DNA of 64,000 bases, from NCBI RefSeq assembly GCF_020531985.1, contig NZ_JAJAVQ010000002.1, positions 744,001-808,000 of the forward strand, read 5' to 3'. Under the pieces are notes generated by a model that ran no database searches, was not told the origin of the DNA, and saw only the letters and a program-made list of their open reading frames with translations. Shown piece after piece: positions 5,625 through 9,581 of the stretch. The translations under genes and the position numbers were made by a program. The first letter of the stretch is position 1. Every line of letters starts with the position of its first letter. This DNA is from Rheinheimera aquimaris (GTDB lineage: Bacteria > Pseudomonadota > Gammaproteobacteria > Enterobacterales > Alteromonadaceae).

Positions 5625-5642
5625 TAAGACAGCGTTGTCACG
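5625..5642 (-). promoter_or_regulatory. NagR-type operator upstream of TauE-like gene
   Basis: TAAGACAGCGTTGTCACG keeps the GACAGCGTTGTC core of the operator at 742-759 but has changed flanks. On the minus strand it directly follows an AT-rich -10-like TAATAAT, so it should block the TauE-like promoter. It is also about 200 bp before sapC on the plus strand and could affect that gene. Confidence 0.6.
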
Positions 5643-6629: not shown

Positions 6630-6680
6630 TTGATTTGATTAAAAAATGTTCATAGTATAGAAAATGACAACGTTGTCATG
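6630..6680 (+). promoter_or_regulatory. Orphan promoter with near-perfect NagR operator
   Basis: TTGATT (6630-6635) and TAGTAT (6653-6658) are spaced 17 bp. They run into AATGACAACGTTGTCATG (6663-6680), whose 16-bp core 6664-6679 is a perfect palindrome and the most symmetrical of the five operators. Layout matches the TonB-receptor promoter. No protein gene starts downstream on the plus strand; the next gene is the convergent chitobiase ending at 6865. Confidence 0.6.
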
Positions 6681-6861
6681 ATGACGTTGTGCGGTTTTCA
6701 TGTGACCGCCGGGATGCAGGCTCTGGCTGATGTCTGCGGATATCTCCCTATTTCAGGCCGCAGGGTAGTTGTTGTGGCCTGAAGCAGTCGACAAGGATGT
6801 TGCTTTTATTTGCCAATCTTTAGGGTGTTTTGCCAGCTAACCCCGGTTAGCTGGCTTTTTT
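6665..6861 (+). ncRNA. Candidate NagR-controlled small RNA
   Basis: Between the orphan operator and a strong terminator lie about 195 nt with no convincing ORF. The only frames are 22 codons from ATG 6714 without a Shine-Dalgarno and 8 codons from about 6798. The RNA would fold: GCGGT (6691-6695) with ACCGC (6705-6709); an 11-bp stem TTCAGGCCGCA (6752-6762) with TGTGGCCTGAA (6773-6783), one G-U pair; and the terminal hairpin. A pyrimidine stretch TCTCCC (6743-6748) is complementary to GGGAGA in the TonB-receptor Shine-Dalgarno (802-807). Existence and function are inferred. Alternatives are a relic promoter of a lost gene or the 3' UTR of sapC. Confidence 0.45.
6832..6861 (+). terminator. Rho-independent terminator (plus strand)
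   Basis: GCCAGCTAAC (6832-6841) and GTTAGCTGGC (6846-6855) form a perfect 10-bp stem with a CCCG tetraloop, followed by TTTTTT (6856-6861). The T-run is only on the right, so it ends plus-strand transcripts (sapC read-through or the candidate small RNA), not the chitobiase on the minus strand. Confidence 0.85.
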
Positions 6862-6864
6862 GTC

Positions 6865-9444
6865 TCAAGGCGTTAACGGCAGTTTGACCGTACGGCTGAC
6901 GGTATTGCCTTGGCGGCTTCGCGCCAAAAAGCTTTGTTCTGCAAGCTTTGCAGTGTTACAGGCATGCCAGCTATTACCGTTGTCTGTTGAACATTCAATG
7001 GTCAAATGCGGCAAGGCTGTATTAAATTGCCAGCCAGCTTTGCCAAGTTGCGCACCCGGCGGTGGCAGGTAGAAGCTGCTACCTGCGTCATTTAGCCGGG
7101 CTAATTCAACATTACTTAACCGGGCAGCAAAGCTTTGCCAGTCTCTGAGTTTCCCGGCGTTATCGCCGGTATCTTCCCAGGCGGCTTTGTGCCAGGCGCG
7201 CTCCGCCAGCGCCAGCATACGCGGGTAAATCATCTGTTCCAGCTGTTGTTCGGTGCGTATGGTTTCACTCCATACCTGGCCCTGAATACCCAGGATATTT
7301 TCCGGTTGTGCTAACTCAGGCAAGGCTCTGCCAACCAAAGCGGGTAAATCGGTAATGCTGGTACCACTGCGGGTTGTGTCAGCATTGGCATACAGGTTAT
7401 CAGGCATAAAGCCAAACACTTTGTCGATGCCAGCATACCGGGTTGCCCAGTAGTAGCCACGTTCTTGCGGATGTGCCTCGTGCGGGTGGTCAAAATAGAG
7501 GTGGGTGGCTGGTGACAATACCACCTGATAGCCATTATTCGCCAGGCGGTAAGCTCTGTCTGCAACTCCCCATTCCCAGATATTGTCCCAAGCGTTGGCA
7601 ATAATCTGTTTGTTTTTCAGTTTTTTACGTTCAAATGTATTTTGCTGATCATACATCAAACCATCTTCCCAGCCCGCTAACACCAACTTATGTTGCTGCG
7701 TAAGCTCTGCCAGCCGGCTGACAAAATAAGGCTTTAAATCCGCCACTGTGCTGATATTGTTGCTGCTTTGTGTAAATAACTGCTGACAAGCGGGAGAGCC
7801 CTCCCAGGAACCCTTGGCTACCTCGTCACCGCCCATATGGAAGGTGCTTAGCTTAATGTCGGCTTGCTGATACATCTTCTGCAGCTCGGACAATACTTTT
7901 TCGATAAAGGCATAAGTTGAAGGCAGGCAAACATTGGCTGAGTTGTCGTTATAGTTCTGCACGCTGAGATAAACCGACGTATCGTCCGGGTCTGACAACA
8001 GATACTGTGTTGCTTCTTCGGCATTTCCCTCAGCCATCAGGCGGTTGTAACGGGCTTTCATGGCGATAATAGCCGCTCTAGCGTGGCCTGGCAGGTCTAT
8101 CTCGGGAATGACTTCTATATGGCGTGCAGTGGCATAACGCAGTATTTCAATAAAGTCTGCTGTAGTGTAATAGCCATTGCCGCTGCCGGTAGCATCAGGC
8201 CCGGTGCCAAGCTGCGTCAGTAAACATTTTTGTTCGGACAGATCAAAGCAACGCGTCGCACCTATGTCGGTAAGTTCGGGTAAGCCGGGGATCTGCAAAC
8301 GCCAGCCTTCATCTTCGGTTAAATGCAGATGCAATTTGTTTAGCTTGTAGCGGGCCATGTTATCAATAAGGCGCAATGTAACAGCTTTGCCATGGAAGTT
8401 ACGCGCCATATCGTAGTGCATACCACGCCAGCCAGCTCTTGGCTGGTCGGTGATTTTTCCAGCCGGCAGCGTTAGCCCTTTGCTGCTGTTTTGCAGCAAC
8501 GCGAGCAGGCTTTGAATAGCATAAAAAGTCCCGCTGCTGTCTTTGCCGTTAAGGCTTATCTGCTGCTCGCTGATGGTCAACTGGTAACCTTCTGCAGCAA
8601 GCTCAAGCTCGGGTGTTGTACTCAGCCGGATAAGCTGCTTTGCGCTGGCGTCGTGGCTGGCGAGCCTCAGCTGAATACCTTGCTGCTGCAACTGCTGTTG
8701 CAGGTAGTTAGCTTCAGGCTTTAAGGCGTCATCAAACTGTATCTGCCAGTCAGTAGTCAACAACACCCGTTGTGGAAGCAATTCAGCATGTAATGGGGCA
8801 GGAATGATACGGGCACTGCTATCACTAGTTGTATCGTCTGATAGCAGGCTGGCATTGCGCTTAAACCGGTTTGACGGCGTCACAACGGCAACCTGCTCAC
8901 CTTCGGCAAAGTTTCGCTGCAACTGCGCCGGTGAAATCAGTGGCTGCACAAAAGCGCTGAAATCCTCAGTATTGGTGTTTGCGAAAATTTCAGGCGTCAG
9001 GCCTTTAGCAGTGATAAAAGCCCGCGGCATAAAGTCACTGTAGCTTACCATCCAGGGCGCTGAGCTAAACGGCAACGATAACTGCTGTGCCGGTGTTAAA
9101 CCCGCGAAACGTTCCGTAGGGCTGATACGATGTAAATCACCCTGCACATGTTCTATTTTAACGCCATGCAGTTCAATGGTATCGATATGCCGGATCAGGT
9201 GAAAATAGACCTGCCAGTCTGACTTACCCGCAGGCAACGCAAACTTTGAACCATTGTGCAGCGTAATGGCCGCATTGAACTGCATTGGTGTTGTAGGTTG
9301 CTGCTGTGCCACGGCAAAACTCAACGTACTTTGGCTGGCAAATTGTGCTAGCTGCTGTTGGGTAAATGACGTCGCTGCCGACAGTTGTTGGCAGCTCAGT
9401 GCCAGCAATCCAAAAATGTATTGTCGCAAATCTTCTCTCCCCAT
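6865..9444 (-). CDS. hex: Beta-N-acetylhexosaminidase (chitobiase), GH20
   Basis: An exported 859-residue enzyme that releases GlcNAc from chitobiose and short chitin oligomers. The N-terminus is a signal peptide (IFGLLALSCQQLSAATS). A carbohydrate-binding chitobiase-type domain follows (about 30-200), then the GH20 N-terminal domain (about 220-340), and the catalytic barrel from about 345. The catalytic pair is D540-E541 in FHMGGDEVAKGSW. WRGMHYDMARNF and HLHLTEDEGWRL are also typical. Length matches Serratia and Vibrio chitobiases. Start is the ATG at 9444; a TTG five codons later, behind GGGGAGAGAAG, is an alternative. It is divergent from nagK, and the operator at 9613-9630 lies between them. 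Confidence 0.92.
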   Translation of the reverse strand: MGREDLRQYIFGLLALSCQQLSAATSFTQQQLAQFASQSTLSFAVAQQQPTTPMQFNAAITLHNGSKFALPAGKSDWQVYFHLIRHIDTIELHGVKIEHVQGDLHRISPTERFAGLTPAQQLSLPFSSAPWMVSYSDFMPRAFITAKGLTPEIFANTNTEDFSAFVQPLISPAQLQRNFAEGEQVAVVTPSNRFKRNASLLSDDTTSDSSARIIPAPLHAELLPQRVLLTTDWQIQFDDALKPEANYLQQQLQQQGIQLRLASHDASAKQLIRLSTTPELELAAEGYQLTISEQQISLNGKDSSGTFYAIQSLLALLQNSSKGLTLPAGKITDQPRAGWRGMHYDMARNFHGKAVTLRLIDNMARYKLNKLHLHLTEDEGWRLQIPGLPELTDIGATRCFDLSEQKCLLTQLGTGPDATGSGNGYYTTADFIEILRYATARHIEVIPEIDLPGHARAAIIAMKARYNRLMAEGNAEEATQYLLSDPDDTSVYLSVQNYNDNSANVCLPSTYAFIEKVLSELQKMYQQADIKLSTFHMGGDEVAKGSWEGSPACQQLFTQSSNNISTVADLKPYFVSRLAELTQQHKLVLAGWEDGLMYDQQNTFERKKLKNKQIIANAWDNIWEWGVADRAYRLANNGYQVVLSPATHLYFDHPHEAHPQERGYYWATRYAGIDKVFGFMPDNLYANADTTRSGTSITDLPALVGRALPELAQPENILGIQGQVWSETIRTEQQLEQMIYPRMLALAERAWHKAAWEDTGDNAGKLRDWQSFAARLSNVELARLNDAGSSFYLPPPGAQLGKAGWQFNTALPHLTIECSTDNGNSWHACNTAKLAEQSFLARSRQGNTVSRTVKLPLTP

Positions 9445-9581
9445 TTTTGCTAAGCTAGTAAGGCTTAGCGGTTATCAGCTCAGAGCTGTTATTCAAGCGG
9501 ATGATAATAAACATCTTTATAATAAGTTTTTGCTTGTGTCACTAAACTTTTAGCTCGATTTTTAAACAAGACACTTGTTAT

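What the first reader, a model, noticed from the sequence alone, without database searches (positions are those of the whole stretch)
6630..6861. Candidate NagR-controlled small RNA with no protein gene
A promoter-like sequence (TTGATT-17-TAGTAT) feeds into the most symmetrical of the five NagR-type operators, then about 195 nt without a convincing ORF, an 11-bp hairpin (6752-6783), and a textbook Rho-independent terminator (6832-6861) oriented only for the plus strand. A chitin regulon that makes its own small RNA would be new in this group. The element TCTCCC (6743-6748) can pair with GGGAGA in the TonB-receptor ribosome site at 802-807, and with flanking bases (one bulge) reaches 11 pairs, so receptor repression is a testable idea. 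The pairing is partly in competition with the hairpin.
Basis: partly seen in the sequence, partly recalled or inferred. Interest (0 to 1): 0.85.

Follow-up and report, generated by a model that had tools for sequence, protein, structure and literature searches.

The report
Sugar-controlled small RNA beside chitin genes
The stretch is very probably a real gene for a regulatory RNA, apparently switched by the same repressor that controls chitin-sugar use, and it recurs in relatives of this bacterium; what the RNA acts on is still unknown.

Summary
Window 6630-6861 carries a promoter-like sequence, a perfect 16-bp NagR-type palindrome over the expected start, about 197 nt without a convincing ORF, a hairpin (6752-6783) and a plus-strand intrinsic terminator. 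A covariance model of the 3' half alone (no operator in it) gives one strong hit in each of 25 genomes: 2 of 31 in the window's genus, 17 of 22 in a sister genus, 6 Alkalimonas-type. All 25 have the operator upstream. The hairpin covaries (91.8% of cells paired; 0 of 500 shuffles reach the covariation score) around a nearly invariant loop GGUAGUUG. Nine NAG clusters without the RNA lack this operator. No ORF is shared across members; Rfam has no accepted match. So: a new sRNA family under a NagR-type operator, expected to be induced by GlcNAc/chitin (transcription not shown). The proposed target, the TonB-receptor ribosome site, is not supported: that site is equally conserved without the RNA, the CUCCC element is predicted paired and absent in 5 of 25, and pairing does not beat shuffles. 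No conserved target was found; trans-acting antisense action is the best guess.

The parts
6630..6658 (+). promoter-like: TTGATT (6630-6635), 17-nt spacer, TAGTAT (6653-6658)
   Evidence: hexamers of at least 8 of 12 in 18 of 25 members; below the cut-off of the scan
6663..6680 (.). NagR-type operator AATGACAACGTTGTCATG over the expected transcription start; also the self-complementary 5' end of the RNA
   Evidence: operator upstream in 25 of 25 family members
6665..6861 (+). small RNA gene, about 197 nt, start inferred from the -10 hexamer
   Evidence: relatives; covariation; no ORF shared across members
6743..6748 (+). TCTCCC element; CTCCC occurs in 20 of 25 members
   Evidence: predicted to be paired internally
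6752..6783 (+). covarying hairpin with the conserved loop GGUAGUUG (6764-6771)
6791..6818 (+). conserved segment ACAAGGATGTTGCTTTTATTTGCCAATC
6832..6861 (+). intrinsic terminator, 10-bp stem, T6

Best explanation
A free-standing small RNA gene of the N-acetylglucosamine/chitin regulon. The neighbouring LacI-family repressor (NagR by context) binds the palindrome over the start site and keeps the promoter shut; GlcNAc catabolism would release it, giving a ~197-nt structured RNA that ends at its own terminator. The RNA most likely acts in trans by base-pairing through its conserved segments (the GGUAGUUG loop; the GGAUGUUG...UUUGCCAAUC stretch; in most members CUCCC), adjusting other genes while chitin sugars are used. 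Shown by sequence: operator, terminator, conservation, covariation, no ORF shared across members. Inferred: transcription, induction by GlcNAc, action by base-pairing. Unknown: targets.
For: 25 genomes carry the 3' domain, one strong hit each, all with TGACARCGYTGTCA upstream, although the model contains no operator. Four chance hits of a sequence pattern in unrelated bacteria have no operator. Helix: 7 of 7 pairs with changes on both sides, covariation 0.901 against 0.224 shuffled, 0/500; sliding the partner by 1-3 columns gives at most 0.318. Terminator pairs change on both sides in 10 of 11, largely because two groups carry two different terminators. An operator sits at the RNA in 7 of 7 fetched clusters with it; 9 of 9 without it have only two, at the receptor and nagK. 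In 23 of the 24 other members the DNA held around the element encodes at least one of receptor, SapC, hex or nagK; the 24th (L115, 2.5 kb held) shows only the Gfo/Idh gene. NagK identified by an equivalog model.
Against: No transcript data. No conserved target found. The conserved segments are mostly predicted to be paired. Only 2 of 31 genomes of the window's own genus keep it, so it is dispensable. L117 lacks the loop hairpin and L115 has a changed loop. The regulator is called NagR from context only: the two LacI proteins scanned (R. baltica and a sister-genus genome) pass no equivalog cut-off, and the window's own copy is cut by the window edge. Motif counts are not corrected for kinship.
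Confidence: 0.7

Rival explanations
1. Feedback sRNA on its own regulon: UCUCCC covers the ribosome sites of the TonB receptor and, in this species, of hex (11 contiguous pairs UCUCCCUAUUU/AAAUGGGGAGA), damping both when GlcNAc is present.
For: With the CU stretch assumed open, hex ranks 5 and the receptor 11 of 306 leaders scored in the window plus about 380 kb of the own genome; GGGAGA lies at -25..-4 in 5 of 357 leaders. Four sister-genus hex leaders have GGGGAG before the start (L062, L066, L074, L166).
Against: With the RNA's own structure counted, hex and receptor rank 26 and 77 among 357 leaders, 7 and 11 among 45 in the window, and the receptor's best site is then the operator palindrome, not TCTCCC. 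The receptor leader is equally conserved in genomes without the RNA. The 11-bp hex match is in no other hex leader read, and one of the four GGGGAG genomes (L062 = L048) lacks CTCCC. Pairing to the receptor p 0.06-0.52 against shuffles.
Confidence: 0.12
2. A protein-binding RNA, for example one that binds CsrA at the conserved ACANGGA, or another protein at the fixed loop, rather than an antisense RNA.
For: ACANGGA in 22 of 25 members, 0.58 expected in mononucleotide shuffles; a nearly invariant loop on a freely covarying stem; structured RNA. The CsrA consensus is recalled.
Against: Only one such site is conserved, unlike the many sites of CsrB-type RNAs (recalled); the GGA is mostly predicted paired; ACANGGA is absent from L060, L076 and L117.
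Confidence: 0.15
3. A regulated leader (attenuator) of the downstream gene, the Gfo/Idh oxidoreductase in the sister genus.
For: In many sister-genus genomes a Gfo/Idh gene follows on the same strand (one confirmed by Pfam).
Against: In the window, R. baltica and the Alkalimonas clusters L063, L167 and L168 the next gene is the convergent hex; in L060/L170 an unidentified 236-aa frame follows. Four sister-genus clusters without the RNA (L155-L158) keep Gfo/Idh without an operator in front of it. The terminator sequence is not conserved between groups.
Confidence: 0.05
4. A relic of a deleted gene, or a small peptide gene.
For: A 34-codon ORF exists at 6678. A 27-28-codon frame over the conserved core is shared inside one subgroup (L051, L052, L067, L075, similar in L048), as its DNA similarity would give anyway.
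Against: No frame is shared across the 25 members; longest ORFs are 17-60 aa with different sequences between groups; stems covary; the 3' half is 84% identical to R. baltica.
Confidence: 0.02

Closest known systems
GibS (Bacteroides thetaiotaomicron; PMC7366714, abstract and passages seen)
   Same: intergenic sRNA of similar size (145 nt), most induced with GlcNAc among the sugars tested, own terminator, conserved in its genus
   Different: other phylum and promoter type; largely unstructured 5' part; no sequence link tested
ChiX (E. coli, Salmonella; PMC4098024, passages seen)
   Same: sRNA tied to chitin-sugar uptake
   Different: ChiX represses the chitoporin when chitosugars are absent and is titrated by chb mRNA; here the RNA is itself predicted to be induced with the regulon. 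No Rfam family matched at its cut-off
TfoR (Vibrio cholerae; PMC11856585, passages seen)
   Same: chitin-induced sRNA
   Different: activated by the membrane regulators TfoS and ChiS, acts on tfoX; here a LacI-type operator inside the GlcNAc cluster
ChvR (Caulobacter; PMC6237742, passages seen)
   Same: sRNA that pairs through stem-loops; its target is a TonB-dependent receptor
   Different: controlled by another system (recalled); receptor target shown there and not supported here

Membership tests
intrinsically terminated bacterial small RNA gene | own promoter and Rho-independent terminator | tested here: met
   terminator; a T-run tail behind a hairpin (by eye) in 25 of 25 members (the script required the T-run); promoter-like only
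intrinsically terminated bacterial small RNA gene | no reading frame shared across members, conserved RNA structure | tested here: met
intrinsically terminated bacterial small RNA gene | a transcript of the expected size | not testable with these tools
   no expression data held
trans-acting base-pairing sRNA | pairing to target mRNAs conserved across species | tested here: inconclusive
   receptor not supported; partial background only; other seeds
NagR (LacI-family) regulon member | operator at the promoter, conserved | tested here: met
   25 of 25; at the RNA in 7 of 7 clusters, absent in 9 of 9 without it
NagR (LacI-family) regulon member | regulator is NagR and responds to GlcNAc | not testable with these tools
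   LacI family, no equivalog passes; NagR is LacI-family in PMC5343134 (passages)
Rfam families incl. RybB | score at or above the gathering cut-off | tested here: not met
   none at gathering; RybB 19.7 bits against 40, E 0.084; nothing at E up to 1 for L067
CsrB/RsmZ-type CsrA sponge | many GGA sites in hairpin loops | tested here: not met
   one conserved ACANGGA, mostly predicted paired

The most novel reading that the evidence does not exclude
A chitin-sugar-induced RNA whose fixed GGUAGUUG loop, carried on a freely changing stem, is a recognition module for a protein or a kissing partner outside the NagR regulon, so that one local sugar repressor commands a genome-wide response; its operator is at once DNA binding site and 5' RNA hairpin.
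Probability: 0.2. Interest if true: 0.75.

Novelty: new member of a known kind. Interest (0 to 1): 0.6.

Why it matters
NagR-type regulons of aquatic chitin degraders have been described through protein genes (PMC5343134, passages). A conserved RNA arm under the same operator, in two genomes one of only three exact operator sites (G138, G215), would add post-transcriptional control to chitin use and gives a ready covariance model and a clear experiment. Nine related clusters that lack it offer a natural comparison.

Tried and rejected
Receptor repression through TCTCCC: tested by leader conservation, accessibility, rank and shuffles, not supported. hex repression: a striking 11-bp match, but only in this species among the hex leaders read. 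Full-loop complement CCAACTACCAA in 14 genomes (3 without the RNA): 33 places, 11 of them the RNA genes themselves, not more than the reversed control; 29 of 33 were read. GGATTGGCAAA in 6 genomes: 47 places against 11 for the reversed control, 4 of them RNA genes; 30 of 47 were read, many inside reading frames. No conserved leader site was seen. One lead: a site at the start codon of a membrane-protein-like gene of the own genome (L213, L248:4875), rank 5 of 357, without a counterpart in the loci read. Pseudoknot between the GGUAG loop and UUGCC: RNAalifold pairs them, but 5 of those 8 pairs never vary and the other three show no change on both sides; L117 keeps UUGCCAAUCC without the loop; undecided. 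RNAduplex of the whole RNA without accessibility gave meaningless long duplexes. Wider spread: among 394 genomes of the order the only hit outside the family is weak, E 0.001. Tryptophan-halogenase presence goes with the RNA in 7 of 9 clusters against 0 of 9 without it (motif; three proteins checked by Pfam); kinship confounds it. Rows dropped: weak model hits (E 0.001 and above) were treated as chance after I read six of them (L095, L097-L101); the others were not read or only pattern-scanned. One search scored 11 of 16 genomes; 5 leaders were not located by the script. One search leaves out the window (loop one base longer) and L050 of the 24 sequences that one search counts; L117 has no such hairpin and is in neither.

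Full report
Setting. The window lies in a 4.23-Mb genome (G000). Its cluster reads: LacI gene (minus, cut by the window edge), TonB-dependent receptor (TIGR01782), cupin_8, TauE, SapC, the element, convergent GH20 hexosaminidase, then nagK (equivalog NagK_SO3507, 444 bits), a SIS-type gene (nagB by context), nagA (by context) and an MFS transporter.

Observation. The window's RNA folds more stably than all 200 shuffles; of four relatives, three do the same and L067 is matched or beaten by 5 of 200.

Relatives. DNA similarity found the element in R. baltica at the same place, 84% over the 3' half (no other strong match in 31 genomes), and then in other genera. A pattern scan of the held species genomes gave 21 stretches: 17 labelled Rheinheimera, Alkalimonas or gammaproteobacterial MAGs, and 4 chance hits elsewhere. 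Of the 17, 16 had the operator and one (L078) was cut before it; the 4 chance hits had none. A covariance model of the 3' domain (operator excluded) gave 15 strong hits (E below 1e-11) in 246 genomes of the family, 2 in the 31 of the window's genus and 17 (E below 1e-8) in the 22 of a sister genus: together 25 genomes, six of them in a genus matched to Alkalimonas by identical sequences (how many of that genus were searched is not known). All 25 have TGACARCGYTGTCA upstream. In 394 genomes of the order nothing strong lies outside the family. The first relatives were found with a query that included the operator, but all 25 are also hits of the model that does not.

Structure. Anchored on the loop, the stem pairs in 92% of cells against 53% with arms exchanged (largest of 2000: 68%) among 22 distinct sequences including the window. 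On alignment A4 (22 rows, 21 distinct) it is 91.8% against 55.3%, covariation 0.901 against 0.224, 0 of 500 shuffles; one pair occurs as GC, UA, CG and UG. GGTAGTTG is present in 23 of 25 members, ACANGGA in 22, TTGCCAATC in 21, CTCCC in 20; mononucleotide-shuffle means are 0.26, 0.58, 0.02 and 2.7. These counts do not correct for kinship. Two different terminators end the RNA in two groups.

Context. In the nine fetched NAG clusters without the RNA only the receptor and nagK operators are found; in the seven with it, one sits at the RNA as well (L168 has a fourth; in L169 the nagK side is beyond the contig end). tblastn with cluster proteins finds receptor, SapC, hex or nagK beside 23 of the 24 other members; L115 (2.5 kb held) shows only Gfo/Idh. 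Eight genomes have 3 to 7 exact operator sites (each place is listed on both strands). In G215 the three are receptor, RNA and nagK (L166); in G138 the RNA and nagK sites were read (L062), the third was not. Six genomes of the window's genus without the RNA still have a similar terminator hairpin between sapC and hex, consistent with loss, though gain elsewhere is not excluded.

Mechanism. The operator covers the inferred start, so repression by blocking is the simple reading. Because of that overlap the RNA would begin with the palindrome, a possible 5' hairpin (seen in the folds; the same arm pairs with the sequence just downstream). What the RNA does is inferred. I tested the receptor idea: leaders are the same with and without the RNA; CUCCC is predicted paired; the pairing does not beat shuffles. 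With the element assumed open, hex and the receptor are both high in a background of 306 scored leaders (ranks 5 and 11), but 26 and 77 once structure counts. The 11-bp hex match is not found in other hex leaders read; four sister-genus leaders have the shorter GGGGAG. No other conserved target emerged.

Literature. Listings only: a small RNA in Rheinheimera (5 papers, none on this by title or abstract start), chitin sRNA with TonB receptor (1), NagR with chitin and small RNA (7; 10 of 59 listed), Rheinheimera transcriptomes and chitin (8 of 26 listed). None of the listed items reports this RNA by title or abstract start. The library is open-licence PubMed Central only. GibS, ChiX, TfoR and ChvR are the nearest kinds (passages only). 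A search for the CsrA consensus returned nothing, so it rests on recall.

Verdict.

Noticed in passing
5625-5642: A degraded operator (3 mismatches) upstream of sapC; R. baltica has an exact one at the corresponding place (L021:10668), so this operator may be decaying in the window.
   Followed up: partly
431-449: AATGACAACGCTGGTCAAT beside the LacI gene: operator-like with one extra base, perhaps the regulator's own site (by eye).
   Followed up: no
L123:1501-2508 (G000:C9:134220) and L124: Exact NagR-type operator just upstream of a lipoprotein-like gene with a GH16 match (23.8 bits, cut-off 22) in the own genome and of a similar gene in R. baltica: a likely regulon member outside the cluster.
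   Followed up: partly
L131 (G000:C9:323272), L132, L130: Operators near a glutathionylspermidine-synthase-like gene (Pfam checked in L131 only) in three genomes; distance and orientation leave open what they control.
   Followed up: partly
9417-9446 (minus strand): hex probably starts at TTG 9429 behind GGGGAGA, not at ATG 9444; its ribosome site has 11 contiguous pairs with the RNA, not found in the other hex leaders read.
   Followed up: yes
L117, L115, L076: Atypical members: L117 has the hairpin replaced, L115 a changed loop and core, L076 lost CTCCC and GGA.
   Followed up: partly
L021, L165-L170: Tryptophan-halogenase genes sit in these clusters with the RNA (not in the window or L164) and were seen in none of the nine fetched clusters without it.
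   Followed up: partly
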